A stretch of 24,479 bases of DNA from a virus, in the IMG/VR virus record IMGVR_UViG_3300042470_001405, positions 1 through 24,479 of that record. One strand, 5' to 3'. This document shows positions 16,647-22,464 of the stretch, in pieces. The notes below the pieces were generated by a model, which saw only the letters and a list, made by a program, of their open reading frames with translations, was not told where the DNA came from and searched no databases. The translations under genes and the position numbers were made by a program. Position 1 is the stretch's first letter; each line of letters opens with the position of its first letter.

Positions 16647-17037
16647 ATACAACTTTCTTTTCAAATTCGAGAATCAAATCTCTTTCGTATAATTTATCTT
16701 TTATAACTTGCTCTGACTCTCCAAACCTGAACACCATTCTCTTCTGACCTCTTACTTCCTCAGGTTCCCATGCCATCGCAACTACATCATCCAAGGCATC
16801 TATCATACAAAAAAAATCGGAGTTCTGAATCAATTCCAATTTAACATCAGTATTTCTCAAAACTCCTACCTTTTTTATATATTTCAACTCGGGAGGTAAT
16901 GGATAACCATTACTTGGTTTTGATTCCCAATTTTCTCCCCAAACGTCTTCCAAATTTTCGTCCGAAAATATGAATTCGTAAATGTTATCCCCTTTATAAT
17001 TGGGTCCTAAACCATTTACGAAAACCAATTTACTCAT
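16636..17037 (-). CDS. Conserved-looking T4-like phage hypothetical (133 aa)
   Basis: Compact alpha/beta protein with ATG start overlapping the previous stop (ATGA). Segments that look family-like: YEFIFSDENLEDVWGENW (21-38), SNGYPLPPELKYIKKVGVLR and SDFFCMIDALDDVVAMAWE (73-91). I recall similar small proteins in T4-like marine phages, near head and neck genes, with no assigned function. The C-terminus is charged and helical. Very even codon spacing and tight overlap with both neighbours show it belongs to one polycistronic unit from 18317 down to the terminase. Confidence 0.7.
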   Translation of the reverse strand: MSKLVFVNGLGPNYKGDNIYEFIFSDENLEDVWGENWESKPSNGYPLPPELKYIKKVGVLRNTDVKLELIQNSDFFCMIDALDDVVAMAWEPEEVRGQKRMVFRFGESEQVIKDKLYERDLILEFEKKVVYEN

Positions 17038-18317
17038 AAAATTTCTCCCTCTGGGGATATTTTAATTTGTTTTTGGTTATTCTCGAAAACTATATTTTTT
17101 TTATTAGTTTTACCTACAACGTTAAAAGAAGGGTTTGCTCTCAAAAATTTTTCTGAAACTAATTCTTGTTTGACAGACTCAGAAAGTTTCACTACTTCAG
17201 TCATTTTTTTTCTTAAAGTAACTTCTTGTATTTTACTTTTTCTTTCTTTTTTTTCTCTTGATTCCAAGATTTCCTTCTTTGTAATTTCAAAATATTTCGA
17301 TAAAACTTTATCTACTTTTGATTCTTTGAAGATACTGTCAAGTATTGAACCATTTCCAACATTCATTTCTCCCATTTCAGATTTTGGTTCATCCATATCA
17401 GCTTGAATGTCCTCAACCTCTGAATCAGAACTAATATCTTCATCATCCATTGACAATTCATTGTCAGACATATCCATATCTCCTTCAGGTCTCTCCTCAG
17501 CTTCTTCAAATTTTGACATGATATCTTCTTTATCTTCTTCAGATAGATTTTTCAAATCCAAAGCAGAAAGAACCATATTTATCACATATTTGATATCTTC
17601 TGAAGTCATTCCGTCTTGAGCATCAAACTCTCTAATTTTTTGTGTAAGTTTACCTGTCAACTTTTGAATGGTCTTAAATGTCACCATCTCTTCTGACGCA
17701 GCCGATTCATCACCCATAGCGTCATCCATTTCAGGTTCTCCCTCAGGAGCAGATTCACCACCATCCAATTCTAAATCATCCATACTAGCACCTAAATCAA
17801 TTTCACCATCAGGCATTTCCTCAGCACTCATGTCAACCTCCTCTTCACCTCCGACAGGTGAATCAGGTAATTCTGGTTGCGGAACTGCTGGTGGTTCTGC
17901 AGGTGGTGCCGGAGGTTCTACTGCCTCAGGCTCAGGTTTAGGAGTTTTCAAAACAAATTTCTTTTGTTCTCCATATAATTCAACCCCATTCTCATTCTCA
18001 TTTAATCTATTCAGTTCACCTGCCAATAGATTTAATCTTTTGAATGCTTGGGAATATGAGGAAAAATATTTTCTGTTTTTCATAGGCTCAATGTAATCTA
18101 ACTGAGATTCAGAAACTACTTTCTTGATAATGTATCCTTGTTTTTCTTTTACAATCTGATAGTCATTACCGTCAGCTAAATTTATTGAATATACTGATTT
18201 TGCATTTTCATTCACGGAACTTGGAATTGTTTCGTTGTACTTTGCAATTTCAAGAATTCTTTTGATTTTGTCTTGACCTGTGAGTTTTTCACTCCCTATT
18301 GGTTTTAAGTCTCCCAT
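17034..18317 (-). CDS. Acidic/Pro-rich phage protein (427 aa)
   Basis: Not recognised. The N-terminal 125 residues are a folded-looking domain (GYIIKKVVSESQLDYIEPMK; KYFSSYSQAFKRLNLLAGEL). A Pro/Glu/Ala linker (about 127-155) and a long Asp/Glu/Met/Ser-rich acidic stretch (about 155-210) follow. Next come a helical domain (TIQKLTGKLTQKIREF; TSEDIKYVINMVLSALDLK), another acidic stretch (about 275-320), and a basic helical C-terminal 100 residues. The acidic-then-basic layout resembles the scaffold protein at 5231, so a core or assembly role is possible, but position upstream of terminase does not match T4. It begins 23 bases after the Thr/Pro-repeat gene and overlaps the next gene by ATGA. Confidence 0.7.
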   Translation of the reverse strand: MGDLKPIGSEKLTGQDKIKRILEIAKYNETIPSSVNENAKSVYSINLADGNDYQIVKEKQGYIIKKVVSESQLDYIEPMKNRKYFSSYSQAFKRLNLLAGELNRLNENENGVELYGEQKKFVLKTPKPEPEAVEPPAPPAEPPAVPQPELPDSPVGGEEEVDMSAEEMPDGEIDLGASMDDLELDGGESAPEGEPEMDDAMGDESAASEEMVTFKTIQKLTGKLTQKIREFDAQDGMTSEDIKYVINMVLSALDLKNLSEEDKEDIMSKFEEAEERPEGDMDMSDNELSMDDEDISSDSEVEDIQADMDEPKSEMGEMNVGNGSILDSIFKESKVDKVLSKYFEITKKEILESREKKERKSKIQEVTLRKKMTEVVKLSESVKQELVSEKFLRANPSFNVVGKTNKKNIVFENNQKQIKISPEGEIL

Positions 18318-18340: not shown

Positions 18341-19180
18341 TTAATTGTTGAGTCCGTCAAATCCTCCTAATGTTATGGCATTTAGCTGTATTACCTGAAT
18401 TGTGTTACCATTAGGTAAATCCGCAGCATATCCTGGATGTGGTACTAGTGTACCAGGTGGTAATGTTCCCCCACTAAATGAACCAAGCATTTCCGCAGTA
18501 TATTCATAGTTTTGGTTTACTGATATACCACTATAAAATGGAGTTTGGGTGGGTGTTGGTGTTTGGGTTGGTGTCGCTGGAGGGGTACCTGTTTGTGTAG
18601 GCGTTGGAGTATTAGTTTTGGTTACAGTTGGTGTTGGTGTTGGAGTAACCGCTGAAGTTCCAGTTTGTGTTGGAGTAGCAGCAGGTGTACCTGTTTGTGT
18701 GGGTGTGGGTGTGTTGCTAGCAGTAATTGAAGGTGTGGGTGTATTACTGGCTGTAATTGAAGGTGTAGGTGTATTAGTTTTTGTTGGAGTATTCGTTGTT
18801 GTCACCGATGGTGTTGGAGTTTTTGTTGTTGTCGGTGTGACACTTGGAGTCCCTGTAGGTGTTGAGGTCACATTTGGGGTGTCGGTTTGAGTAGGTGTTG
18901 GTGTTGGGGTTTTAGTCTGTGTCACTGATGGGGTCGGGGTAGGTGTAACAATGGCTAAACAAGTCCCACAATCAACATGATTGATAGACATGAAGTTTAC
19001 AGTATCAGTTCCTGTGGCTGGTTCTGCATAATCAATTATCTCATAACATCCCTCTTGAGTTGCACCCGTGAACCTCAAAAAATAACAACCATTTACAGCA
19101 GGTAAATTACTACTATCAAAATCAACTAATATTGTTGTTCCGCCAAAACAAGGTGCTATTTGGTATGTTAATAAAGCCAT
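18341..19180 (-). CDS. Thr/Pro-repeat protein, probable virion stalk or fibre (279 aa)
   Basis: Three parts. Residues 1-79 form a small Cys-containing domain (Cys11, 32, 45, 71, 74, with a CGTC pair) rich in Gly and aromatics. Residues 80-214 are a Thr/Pro repeat of [10 protein letters not shown]- and [10 protein letters not shown]-type units with almost no charged residues. Residues 215-279 form a C-terminal Gly/Leu/Asn domain. No signal peptide is seen, as expected for a virion protein. Such repeats make extended, protease-resistant stalks and are good O-glycosylation substrates in other systems; both ideas are inference here. The place next to a wall-degrading protein fits a tail or surface appendage. 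Confidence 0.75.
18539..18943 (-). repeat. Thr/Pro-coding degenerate tandem repeat
   Basis: 405 bases encode residues 80-214, in units of about 5-10 codons. One 30-base unit encoding [10 protein letters not shown] is present twice in a row with few differences. On the plus strand the tract reads as GGTGTNGGTGT-like Gly/Val sequence. This is a likely hotspot for length variation by slippage. Confidence 0.93.
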
Positions 19181-19224: not shown

Positions 19225-21198
19225 TTATCTGAGACTTGGGCTTTTAATTGATGCTCCATTCTCATAACCACTGATTACTTTACCAACTAAGTCTCCCGTT
19301 CCCCAAGTTTCTAGAGAAGCACATTTAGCTATTTCAGCAGCACCTATATCATTTATTAAACCGTTTACGATACAATTATATCTCCCATTGGTTAGGGTTC
19401 TTAGTGTTGCGTACATACCATCATCTAATGTCTGATAATTTTGGACCCCCGCAGAGTTAAAATCGGTTGAGTTTTCGAGTTTGTGAGTTGTATTGAATGG
19501 ATTAAAATTACCTGCCTTACCCTCAGCTTGTCTCCAAGCCAATAAAAACTTCATATTTTCATTTGTTACAGGTGCACCTAGTTTGGTAAGTAAAGTTTGA
19601 TAAAAATCTTGGTCATTTTTTGACTCTAATCCGAAATCCCTATCATATTGAAGACCTCTCAAATCAGAATCAGTAAAACCTTTCTGTATCAACATAGCCA
19701 AAAGGTATTTGGAATCTTCTACTCCAAAAATTCCTGTTTGTGGTAACCCAACACTTGATTGAAAATCTTTAACAGCTCCTTGGGTTTCAGGTCCGAATTT
19801 ACCATCAACACCATATCTTGGTAAAGAAAACCCCAAAAATTGTAAACCTGATTGTATCACTTCTACGGGTTGTTCATATGGTATCTTTTGTCCTGGAGTA
19901 TATTCAAAATACAAACCGTCCTTCACGTAGGACATAATCTTTTTCAAGAAAACAGAATCTGATAAAGTATTCCAAACCATCTGTTGGTCTTTATTAGATT
20001 GTTTTTTTTGTTTTGATTTAGGGGTAACTTCAATTTCCCCTTTGGCACATTTTAGAGTACCATCGTCATTCAAAAATTCTCTTATATTGTGTCCATACTC
20101 AACTCCAATGTGCAGGTGGTCATAGGAACTTCCAGGAAAATCCATCACATATCCTAACAATTGTCCACATTTTACTTTGGAACCCTTTTGTACTTGAGCA
20201 TTCTGTAGATGAGTATAATATACATCGGGTAATGAATTATCACTCTTCACAGTGAATCCTATACCAAAAAGTTTTTTCCCTTGAGTTTTCCTTACCTTAG
20301 GTCCGTAGTCTTTGAAGGTTTTAACAGTTCCATCCGCAATTGCATAAACCGGTTCTCCGATAGGTGCTTTAATATCCCAAGCGTTACCACTAGCCCATCC
20401 ACTTTGACCCGCATGAGCACCATCTGCGGGTATTTTAACACTTGCGGAACCAAATAATCTATCACTTTGTTCAGTGATTTTTGATTCGATTGAAAGTTTT
20501 TTATCTTTAGCCTTTGTTATTGCCTCAAAAAGTTTTCCAATCATTTCCGACCTTCTCAAAAATTTGAAAACTAAATTTTCATAGGAAAACTCTCCTTCTT
20601 TTTCTAATCCCGATTTACGATATTTTTTTATTTTTTCTTTGAGAGATTTCATCTTATCGATATCCTCGGTTTCTATTGTATCATCAATTTTTGAAATCCA
20701 AGATTTCACTTTCTTTTTTAAAAAATCAAAATCTATTTCCGCATTTTCCTTGACTGGTTTTTGAATCCATTCATCATTCATTATGGAATAAACAGCACTG
20801 CTGGAATGTTCATCATCCGCACCTTGTGCATAAACCTCAACATCGTAACCATAAATGGTGATATCATATTTATTATTAAACTCTTTCTTTTTTAACTCGA
20901 AAATTTCTCTATACAATTCCTCATCTTCACCATATTTTCCGAAATCAACAAGCAAGTGTAAATCGAAGTCCGAAAATTCTGACCAGTTGTAATTTGCTAA
21001 AGAACCCATCAAGACAATATCTTCGATAAAGACATCGTCCCCTAAATCATCAGAAAATTCCTCAGCAATCTCAAGTAATTTTTTTCTTACTTCAGATTTT
21101 AGAGTTGCCTTATCAATATCCTCGTAGTTATCCCAAACCTTGGGATTCAAATTTTCTTGCAAAGAAAAACTATCTAAAATTTTTTGAAACTTCTTCAT
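19225..21198 (-). CDS. Four-domain protein: nucleotidyltransferase + M23 peptidase + PG-binding + muramidase-like
   Basis: 657 residues. Residues 60-125 hold a Pol-beta-type nucleotidyltransferase signature: MGSLANYNWSEFSDFD (Gly65-Ser66, Asp77, Asp79) and a third acid in YDVEVY (Glu121). Residues 250-372 form an M23 (LytM-like) metallopeptidase: AHAGQSGWASGNAWDI (His262, Asp275), APIGEPVYAIADGTV, YYTH (His330) and SYDHLHIGVEY (His361, His363). Residues 443-497 fit a PG_binding_1 domain (GVDGKFGPETQGAVKDFQ). Residues 548-645 resemble a phage muramidase fold, with WRQAEGKAGNFNPFNTT (candidate Glu559) and VQNYQTLDDGMYATLRTL. The last three parts degrade peptidoglycan at entry or exit; the start domain is unexpected. 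There is no signal peptide or transmembrane segment, so it is either virion-associated or needs a holin. The ATG follows a TATTTAT element by five bases. Confidence 0.88.
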   Translation of the reverse strand: MKKFQKILDSFSLQENLNPKVWDNYEDIDKATLKSEVRKKLLEIAEEFSDDLGDDVFIEDIVLMGSLANYNWSEFSDFDLHLLVDFGKYGEDEELYREIFELKKKEFNNKYDITIYGYDVEVYAQGADDEHSSSAVYSIMNDEWIQKPVKENAEIDFDFLKKKVKSWISKIDDTIETEDIDKMKSLKEKIKKYRKSGLEKEGEFSYENLVFKFLRRSEMIGKLFEAITKAKDKKLSIESKITEQSDRLFGSASVKIPADGAHAGQSGWASGNAWDIKAPIGEPVYAIADGTVKTFKDYGPKVRKTQGKKLFGIGFTVKSDNSLPDVYYTHLQNAQVQKGSKVKCGQLLGYVMDFPGSSYDHLHIGVEYGHNIREFLNDDGTLKCAKGEIEVTPKSKQKKQSNKDQQMVWNTLSDSVFLKKIMSYVKDGLYFEYTPGQKIPYEQPVEVIQSGLQFLGFSLPRYGVDGKFGPETQGAVKDFQSSVGLPQTGIFGVEDSKYLLAMLIQKGFTDSDLRGLQYDRDFGLESKNDQDFYQTLLTKLGAPVTNENMKFLLAWRQAEGKAGNFNPFNTTHKLENSTDFNSAGVQNYQTLDDGMYATLRTLTNGRYNCIVNGLINDIGAAEIAKCASLETWGTGDLVGKVISGYENGASIKSPSLR

Positions 21199-21219: not shown

Positions 21220-21462
21220 TTATAGTTTTTTGAATTTGTATTTTTTTGAAATATCAGTTGAAAAAAATTTTCCTTGTGACTCCGACATTCTGAATCTTGT
21301 ATAAATTTGATGGGGTACGTCCTCATATTGGTATTTAGAACCATTGTTGAATTCAACAATCATCATTTTTGTTTCAACATCATATTCTGTCCTCTTGAGA
21401 TTCGATGATTTAATTTCATTTATAATTTTTGAACCTTCTATAGTTTCTCTAATCACTGACAT
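21220..21462 (-). CDS. KTSC-domain protein (80 aa)
   Basis: The last 60 residues fit the KTSC domain (named for its presence at the C-terminus of some lysyl-tRNA synthetases): SSNLKRTEYDVETKMMIVEF, then NGSKYQYEDVPHQIYTRF and SQGKFFSTDISKKYKFKKL. Free-standing KTSC proteins are common in phages and bacteria; the molecular function is not settled, with RNA binding suggested. It is the most upstream gene of the minus-strand block, 21 bases before the lysin gene, and divergent from the 2OG oxygenase gene with a 38-base AT-rich gap. Full length for the family. Confidence 0.85.
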   Translation of the reverse strand: MSVIRETIEGSKIINEIKSSNLKRTEYDVETKMMIVEFNNGSKYQYEDVPHQIYTRFRMSESQGKFFSTDISKKYKFKKL

Positions 21463-21500: not shown

Positions 21501-22052
21501 ATGAATGTAAATGAATCTTTCAAATATTATGGACATTATGACATATCGAATATTCTGACGATATTAAATAGTGAAAAAGTAGATTGGAACGAATTTACCT
21601 TGAGACAAAAAGCGTGTACTGATATGGTCAATACACAAACAATTAAAATAGTTTATGACAATGATTTTTTTTCTACCAACTTTAATCCAGTGTTTACTAA
21701 AAACTATACCTTCTTCGAAGAGGATTTAAATAATATTTGTGAAATTATAAAAAAACAAACCGGCGGTTCAGGTTATTTACTCAGAGCTATTTTAGTCAAA
21801 CTATACAAAAAAAGTATTATACCAACCCACGTTGACAGTGCAAACAATACTTTTAAATTTTCTAAAAGGATACACATACCAATAATTACAAATGAAAAAT
21901 GTATTTTCAATGTAGGTGAAGAATCCATCAATATGAAAGTCGGTGAAATTTGGGAAATGAATAATGATAAATTATCACATTCTGTGGTGAATGATGGTGA
22001 TGAAGATAGAGTTCATCTTATAATAGATTGGTGTGAAAAAACCCCCAACTAA
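21501..22052 (+). CDS. 2-oxoglutarate/Fe(II) oxygenase, Asp/Asn beta-hydroxylase-like
   Basis: 183 residues. The C-terminal half carries the double-stranded beta-helix signature: PTHVDSANN with His110-x-Asp112, SKRIHIPIITNEKCIFNVG, GEIWEMNNDKLSHSVVN with His160, and DEDRVHLIIDW with Arg170 for 2-oxoglutarate. This fits the aspartyl/asparaginyl hydroxylase family (PF05118), which includes many phage members. The substrate is unknown; a protein side chain or a modified metabolite is possible. The N-terminal 90 residues are unassigned. The stop codon lies in the loop of a terminator hairpin shared with convergent hsp20, so the gene forms its own unit. Confidence 0.85.
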   Translation: MNVNESFKYYGHYDISNILTILNSEKVDWNEFTLRQKACTDMVNTQTIKIVYDNDFFSTNFNPVFTKNYTFFEEDLNNICEIIKKQTGGSGYLLRAILVKLYKKSIIPTHVDSANNTFKFSKRIHIPIITNEKCIFNVGEESINMKVGEIWEMNNDKLSHSVVNDGDEDRVHLIIDWCEKTPN

Positions 22053-22068: not shown

Positions 22069-22464
22069 TCACAGGAGATTGATTCTCTTTTTTTCTTGTT
22101 TTTTGTAATTAGGTACGAATACCGTTAGTAGACCATCTTCTATTGTTGCCTCAATCTCAGATGAATTATATTCCTTTCCAATTTTGAATTCTTTTGATAC
22201 AGATTTTGTTTTTTCTTCACCATTCAATTTATAAATTCTTTTTCCTTGAATGATTAGAATTCCGTCTTCCATTTCTACTTTGAGATTTGATTTATTAAAA
22301 CCAGGAACCTCAAAGAAAAGATATGCACCATCTTTTGTTTGATTTATTTCATAATTCTCCTCATCAGGATTTTTTGAAATTACTGAGGTTTTGAAATAAG
22401 GTTTGGACGTCCCATTGAAAATGTCGTCGAAAATTCTGTTCAATTCGTTGTTAGATAAAATCAT
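22069..22464 (-). CDS. hsp20: Small heat-shock protein Hsp20
   Basis: 131 residues, the usual small-Hsp length. The alpha-crystallin domain spans about 40-119: AYLFFEVPGFNKSNLKVEME (47-66), GILIIQGKR, and the diagnostic ATIEDGLLTVFVP (106-118). The C-terminal tail ends KKRINLL, which supplies an I-x-L anchor for oligomer assembly. Small Hsps hold unfolding proteins without ATP until chaperone machines act on them. Hsp20 is a common gene of T4-like cyanophages; here it is encoded divergently from a ClpC-type ATPase, 165 bases away, suggesting a joint protein-quality function. Its upstream region has a T4-like TATAAATA on the coding strand. Confidence 0.93.
   Translation of the reverse strand: MILSNNELNRIFDDIFNGTSKPYFKTSVISKNPDEENYEINQTKDGAYLFFEVPGFNKSNLKVEMEDGILIIQGKRIYKLNGEEKTKSVSKEFKIGKEYNSSEIEATIEDGLLTVFVPNYKKQEKKRINLL

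What the first reader, a model, noticed from the sequence alone, without database searches (positions are those of the whole stretch)
19225..21198. Nucleotidyltransferase fused to a three-part wall-degrading enzyme
Seen: one 657-residue frame with an apparently intact GS...DxD...E nucleotidyltransferase core, an M23 metallopeptidase with HLH, a peptidoglycan-binding repeat and a muramidase-like end with a candidate catalytic Glu. Endopeptidase plus muramidase combinations are known in phage lysins. A Pol-beta-type nucleotidyltransferase at the front of one is, to my knowledge, unusual. Inference: the enzyme might be injected with the DNA and modify a host RNA, protein or small molecule, be an antitoxin/toxin-like defence module, or regulate the lysin before release.
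Basis: partly seen in the sequence, partly recalled or inferred. Interest (0 to 1): 0.75.

Follow-up and report, generated by a model that had tools for sequence, protein, structure and literature searches.

The report
Phage nucleotidyltransferase fused to wall-cutting enzyme
An uncultured phage, probably of Bacteroidota, joins a widespread but unstudied phage nucleotide-transferring enzyme to a cell-wall-cutting enzyme in one protein; related phages do this repeatedly with different wall-cutters, so the two jobs may be linked during infection, though how is unknown.

Summary
Residues 1-240 are a confidently modelled Pol-beta nucleotidyltransferase (pLDDT 95; G65, S66, D77, D79, E121 invariant in 77 homologues). 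An M23 peptidase domain (HLH 361-363), a PG_binding_1 domain and a C-terminal helical domain follow. That last domain resembles glucosaminidase only in motif order and matches no family or solved fold. The fusion is not an assembly error: it occurs at 86-100% identity in nine independent contigs, with dN/dS about 0.02-0.05 in every domain. The NTase is a phage family (phrog_36119), usually stand-alone; 10 of 80 IMG/VR loci carry it fused. I count 21 distinct fusions. All carry wall-hydrolase domains (M23, VanY, tail lysozyme, glucosaminidase-like, PGB), at one conserved locus in the ones checked. Relatives of the C-terminal domain sit in apparent lysis cassettes beside holin, VanY or GH19 genes, and a genome has the domain either on the NTase or as a separate gene, never both. 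Best reading: a late bifunctional protein whose lysin half comes from the phage's own lysis repertoire and whose NTase half has its own, unknown, substrate. Delivery in the virion is not excluded. No described precedent was found.

The parts
19225..21198 (-). NTase-lysin fusion ORF, 657 aa plus stop
   Evidence: ATG start, no internal stop; orthologues in nine independent IMG/VR contigs plus one 3'-end fragment
20479..21198 (-). Residues 1-240: Pol-beta nucleotidyltransferase with C-terminal helical bundle; G65 S66 ... S76 D77-x-D79 ... E121
   Evidence: phrog_36119 1e-41; 77-row alignment A3 with invariant catalytic residues; AlphaFold pLDDT 95; Foldseek top PDB hits AAD(9), CCA-adding enzyme, LinB, ANT, MNT
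20428..20478 (-). Residues 241-257: linker beginning where stand-alone NTases end (DKxLS[LI]xE tail)
   Evidence: tails of stand-alone proteins versus fused linkers; no ATG between residues 219 and 352
20059..20427 (-). Residues 258-380: M23 metallopeptidase domain; D275, H330, H361, H363; canonical first Zn-ligand His absent, upstream H262 conserved in this subtype
   Evidence: PF01551 1.2e-12, residues 273-368; subfamily alignment; positions
19723..19872 (-). Residues 443-492: PG_binding_1
   Evidence: PF01471 6.4e-12
19228..19686 (-). Residues 505-657: unassigned C-terminal domain with WRQAE(559)G ... NPFNTT motif, putative glycan-cleaving domain
   Evidence: alignments A2/A4; AlphaFold pLDDT 93 without PDB match; relatives in lysis cassettes
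21220..21462 (-). KTSC-domain gene, conserved upstream neighbour of the NTase
   Evidence: PF13619 5e-18; at position -1 in 81 loci
17034..18317 (-). 427-aa protein, conserved downstream neighbour; start of the head/packaging run
   Evidence: present at +1 to +3 in 89 loci; terminase, portal, protease and major capsid protein further along

Best explanation
This is a genuine bifunctional phage protein. Its front half is a conserved, probably active Pol-beta nucleotidyltransferase that many phages encode alone. Its back half is a multidomain lysin (M23 peptidase, wall-binding domain, putative glycan-cleaving domain) of the kind these phages otherwise encode in their lysis cassettes, moved onto the 3' end of the NTase gene. 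Proposed working: late in infection it is made in the cytoplasm from the head-gene region; the NTase half transfers NMP to a host or phage target (protein or RNA most likely); the lysin half digests peptidoglycan once the membrane is opened at lysis. Shown: anatomy, conservation of the NTase catalytic residues, selection on every domain, recurrent fusion at a fixed locus, lysis-cassette origin of the lysin parts. Inferred: catalytic activity, substrate, timing, and that lysis rather than entry is when the lysin acts.
For: Intact catalytic set in 77 homologues and confident Pol-beta fold. Fusion at 86-100% identity in nine independent contigs; dN/dS NTase 0.049, M23 0.046, PGB 0.018, C-term 0.038. 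21 distinct fusions, every one with wall domains of several kinds, needing up to 11 and at least 4 label changes on the NTase tree. The C-terminal domain as a separate gene lies next to a Phage_holin_10 holin and PGB-GH19 endolysin (L206), a GH19-type ORF (L208), or VanY and a conserved 72-aa membrane protein (L192 and relatives). In 34 long contigs the domain occurs at most once: on the NTase ORF in five, as a separate gene in the others that have it. In Caulobacter phage Cr30 the stand-alone NTase gene overlaps the GH19-type endolysin gene.
Against: The window's relative G003 also encodes a separate PGB-GH19 endolysin, so the fusion is not its only candidate lysin. The gene lies in the head/packaging module, which fits virion delivery too, and some sister fusions carry Phage_lysozyme2, named 'Phage tail lysozyme'. 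No expression, virion or enzymatic data. The C-terminal domain has no recognised fold match, and the M23 lacks the canonical first His.
Confidence: 0.5

Rival explanations
1. Virion-delivered polyvalent-type protein: it is packaged in the particle, its lysin half opens the wall during genome entry, and its NTase half is an effector that modifies a host target on arrival.
For: Gene in the head/packaging module; sister fusions carry Phage_lysozyme2, the 'Phage tail lysozyme' family; a separate GH19 endolysin exists in G003. Polyvalent proteins joining effector and lysozyme domains are described (PMC5512222).
Against: Lysin relatives sit in lysis cassettes. Stand-alone NTases lie in replication-gene regions in cyanophages and Cr30. 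The polyvalent-protein paper found Pol-beta NTases only in conjugative elements. No packaging signal could be shown.
Confidence: 0.27
2. The NTase half regulates the lysin, for example by nucleotidylating it in cis and keeping it silent until ATP falls at lysis.
For: Every fusion in this clade is to wall-hydrolase domains although the hydrolase types differ; MNT-type NTases, which modify a partner protein, are among the structural neighbours.
Against: Most family members are stand-alone with no similar lysin within about 6 kb; structurally unrelated hydrolase types would have to share a target site; L034 keeps the NTase after losing the lysin.
Confidence: 0.08
3. Fusion of convenience: the 3' end of a well-expressed late gene is a landing site for lysin modules, and the two halves have no functional connection.
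For: Varied lysin modules appended at the same point, right after the DKxLS[LI]xE tail; deletion scar L034; several gains or losses on the tree.
Against: Only wall domains are found in this clade; Cr30 independently pairs the NTase with an endolysin gene.
Confidence: 0.12
4. Assembly or annotation artefact joining two genes.
For: None found.
Against: Independent contigs, an 86%-identical orthologue, low dN/dS across the junction, no ATG between residues 219 and 352.
Confidence: 0.01

Closest known systems
phrog_36119 phage proteins (stand-alone NTases of Kyanoviridae cyanophages, Cr30, Maribacter phage Molly, Lak and other huge phages)
   Same: Same NTase domain over its whole length, same invariant residues
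   Different: Those are 235-265 aa and stand-alone; unknown function; no lysin attached
Small-molecule and antitoxin NTases: AAD(9), LinB, ANT(4'), MNT antitoxin
   Same: Pol-beta core; the small-molecule enzymes also have a following helical domain
   Different: Weak overall structural match (E 6e-3 at best, TM about 0.25); no sequence family membership; phage-restricted; no HEPN partner seen
Polyvalent proteins of phages and conjugative elements (PMC5512222)
   Same: Multidomain; effector-type and peptidoglycan-attacking domains on one chain
   Different: That paper finds Pol-beta NTases (a minimal type related to NTox45) only in conjugative elements and lysozyme domains only in phages; virion delivery unproven here
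Modular endolysins and virion-associated hydrolases with M23, PG_binding_1 and a glycosidase
   Same: Composition of residues 258-657
   Different: The N-terminal NTase, a non-canonical M23 first ligand and an unassigned last domain
PGB-GH19 endolysins of flavophages (PMC8776804)
   Same: GH19 with PG-binding domain near holins, proposed as endolysin; G003 carries a PGB-GH19 protein
   Different: A separate gene in the same phage species, not the fused lysin

Membership tests
Pol-beta nucleotidyltransferase superfamily | GS ... DxD plus third carboxylate | tested here: met
   G65, S66, D77, D79, E121 invariant in 77 rows
Pol-beta nucleotidyltransferase superfamily | Pol-beta palm fold | tested here: met
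   AlphaFold pLDDT 95; leading PDB hits all Pol-beta NTases, though none reaches E 0.001
Pol-beta nucleotidyltransferase superfamily | Nucleotide transfer activity | not testable with these tools
   needs biochemistry
M23 peptidase | Pfam score above curated cut-off | tested here: met
   48.2 bits versus cut-off 28.7
M23 peptidase | HxxxD ... H ... HxH zinc and catalytic set | tested here: inconclusive
   D275, H330, H361, H363 present; His of HxxxD missing; an upstream His (H262) is conserved in this subtype and may substitute; not modelled
PG_binding_1 | Pfam score above curated cut-off | tested here: met
   45.9 bits versus 23
Lysozyme/glucosaminidase superfamily (C-terminal domain) | Family or fold match | tested here: not met
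   No Pfam or PHROG hit for the window's copy; 7 of 48 relatives reach glucosaminidase only weakly (best 0.0036); no fold match; profile comparison with glucosaminidase-like ends weak
Lysozyme/glucosaminidase superfamily (C-terminal domain) | Invariant catalytic-type Glu at a helix end | tested here: met
   E559 invariant in 48 rows, at the end of the helix at model residues 23-36
Polyvalent proteins | Several effector/enzymatic domains on one chain | tested here: met
Polyvalent proteins | Delivered with the DNA in the virion | not testable with these tools
   needs virion proteomics
MNT-HEPN toxin-antitoxin | Adjacent HEPN partner gene | tested here: not met
   conserved neighbours are KTSC and unassigned or head/packaging proteins
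RlaP RNA-repair NTase | Association with phage RNA ligase | not tested
   described in PMC7824862; RNA-ligase co-occurrence was not scored

The most novel reading that the evidence does not exclude
A phage-type polyvalent protein delivered with the particle that carries its own wall-opening tools and a Pol-beta NTase effector, which modifies a host protein or RNA on entry; this would be a class of injected nucleotidylating effector in uncultured phages.
Probability: 0.25. Interest if true: 0.8.

Novelty: new variant of a known kind. Interest (0 to 1): 0.57.

Why it matters
Gene fusions are among the best clues to linked function. Here an NTase family carried by many phages, from cyanophages to 735-kb huge phages, has no known role, and in one clade it is fused again and again, always to wall-cutting domains. 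That gives a concrete, testable lead to what the NTase does: lysis control, entry effector, or late modification of host components. It also shows that a wall-cutting domain family of these phages is absent from public libraries and cultured phages.

Tried and rejected
Assembly artefact: rejected. Toxin-antitoxin module: no partner gene. Stand-alone NTase beside a similar lysin gene as a general rule: no phmmer hits within about 6 kb; only Cr30 shows overlap with a GH19-type endolysin, and an apparent second case (L053) proved to be only a PG-binding domain. Prohead-protease-like [IL]xE site at the NTase/lysin junction: enriched in fused linkers (23 of 26 versus about 10 expected), but the same DKxLS[LI]xE tail ends stand-alone NTases, so it does not mark the fusion. 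T4-like capsid-targeting tags: a loose regular expression found only 8 tagged genes of 118 in G026, not informative. DrrA/AMPylase kinship: profile hit at E 0.01 only, and the GX11DXD spacing is, from general knowledge, common to many NTases. PADLOC defence match weak (PDC-M70A 9e-6) and not pursued. Literature searches found no description of NTase-lysin fusions.

Full report
Observation. The frame is real but on the minus strand: 21198→19225, ATG start, 657 codons; the plus strand of the same stretch is full of stops. The window is a fragment of a T4-like phage (terminase, portal, prohead protease, major capsid protein). G003, an 80-kb contig with a 100%-identical copy, encodes proteins with Bacteroidota-type signal peptides, so a Bacteroidota host is likely (inference).

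Anatomy. Residues 1-240 match phrog_36119, a family of unknown function, at 1e-41. Pfam NTP_transf_2 and Polbeta are below their cut-offs, but AlphaFold gives pLDDT 95 and the best PDB neighbours are Pol-beta NTases: AAD(9), CCA-adding enzyme, LinB, ANT, MNT (best E 6e-3, so the nearest function is not identified). G65, S66, D77, D79 and E121 are invariant in 77 homologues. M23 and PG_binding_1 score above their Pfam cut-offs. The M23 is a subtype without the His of HxxxD; D275, H330, H361 and H363 remain, and an upstream His (H262) is conserved and could be the replacement ligand (inference). The last ~150 residues form a confidently predicted helical domain (pLDDT 93) with invariant E559 and an NPFNTT motif. 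It has no Pfam or PHROG family, no PDB fold match and no relative in 50,697 phage records. Its motif order resembles glucosaminidase, with weak Pfam hits in 7 of 48 relatives; 'muramidase' is a reasonable but unproven label.

Not an artefact. Full-length orthologues occur in nine independent IMG/VR contigs at 86-100% identity, plus one contig with the 3' end only. Between the window and the 86% orthologue dN/dS is 0.049 (NTase), 0.046 (M23), 0.018 (PGB) and 0.038 (C-term); dS is near saturation, so these are approximate. There is no ATG between residues 219 and 352, so an AUG-initiated lysin with its M23 domain is not made separately.

A family pattern. The NTase is widespread in phages, usually alone: cyanophages, Cr30, Maribacter phage Molly, Lak phages (with TAG read as sense), 630-735-kb phages. 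It is almost absent from 85k bacterial genomes (9 MAG contigs). In one clade the gene sits at a fixed locus: KTSC, NTase, (TPT-repeat protein), 427-aa, 133-aa, 284-aa and 437-aa proteins, terminase. Of 80 loci from the NTase scan, 10 carry a long C-terminal extension with wall domains. With a second scan there are 21 distinct fusions; all carry wall domains in varied sets: M23, PGB and C-term; PGB and glucosaminidase-like; VanY; PGB and Phage_lysozyme2; PGB, M23, lysozyme2 and VanY; a 951-aa version with M23 and PGB twice. The count of 21 is enriched because the second scan used the lysin domain. On the NTase tree the label needs up to 11 changes, at least 4 forced (the earlier tree gave 7 and 5 but counted two non-lysin extensions). 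L034 shows the reverse step: an NTase followed by a scar of a deleted M23-PGB lysin. Predicted viral structures show the same NTase in other long proteins, one named amidoligase.

Where the lysin half comes from. As separate genes, relatives of the C-terminal domain lie beside a Phage_holin_10 holin and PGB-GH19 endolysin (L206), a GH19-type ORF (L208), or VanY and a conserved 72-aa membrane protein (L192 and six relatives). Across 34 long contigs the domain never occurs twice: five have it on the NTase ORF only, 16 as a separate gene, 13 not at all. In G028 the separate gene is directly upstream of an NTase-PGB-M23-glucosaminidase fusion. So the fused lysin appears to replace a lysis-cassette lysin. 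G003 still has a separate PGB-GH19 protein, the type proposed as endolysin in flavophages (PMC8776804).

Mechanism. Shown: an NTase with intact catalytic residues and selected wall-hydrolase domains on one chain, repeatedly and selectively joined. Inferred: late cytoplasmic synthesis; NMP transfer to a host or phage protein or RNA; wall digestion at lysis. The main rival is virion delivery as a polyvalent-type protein. The polyvalent-protein survey placed Pol-beta NTases only in conjugative elements and lysozyme domains only in phages (PMC5512222), so the combination would be new there as well. Regulation of the lysin by the NTase, and mere convenience of position, remain possible.

Limits. 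The contigs are fragments, so absence is weak evidence. No expression, proteomic or biochemical data exist here. Literature coverage is limited to the open library.

Noticed in passing
L034:6001-6819: Stand-alone NTase ending in a scar of a deleted M23-PGB lysin (IKESTTNIGGSFKTDL joined to TPDGKLSEKDLIQLAKSF): loss of the fusion caught in the act.
   Followed up: partly
L144:3628-6480: 951-aa version with the M23 and PGB modules twice and two matches to the C-terminal domain (one partial): apparent internal duplication.
   Followed up: partly
window 19228-19629 and A4 relatives: C-terminal WRQAEG...NPFNTT domain family: confident model, no Pfam, PHROG or PDB match, absent from cultured phage records; an apparently undescribed phage lysin domain.
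   Followed up: yes
L192:6486-6704 and L171, L174, L180, L182, L184, L195: Conserved 71-72-aa single-TM protein starting within a few bases of the end of the lysozyme-like gene; no Pfam family; possible holin or spanin.
   Followed up: partly
window 22069-22464: Hsp20 gene near the NTase; cyanophages DSL-LC02 and DSL-LC03 also have a heat-shock gene just upstream of their NTase, perhaps ancient synteny.
   Followed up: partly
window 21501-22052: Aspartyl/asparaginyl beta-hydroxylase-like gene (PF05118) on the opposite strand between Hsp20 and KTSC.
   Followed up: no
window 18341-19180: Protein with long TPT/NTP-rich repeats right after the NTase gene, also at position +1 in 49 loci.
   Followed up: no
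L157, L161, L163, L165, L179, L185, L189, L191 protein N-termini: Separate lysins begin with about 20-residue charged tags ending in [IL]xE (e.g. MSKRIIISEEEKNEIKSLYNINE), reminiscent of T4 capsid-targeting sequences; meaning untested.
   Followed up: partly
L009:5944-6711: Lak phage NTase reads through TAG, consistent with stop-codon reassignment.
   Followed up: no
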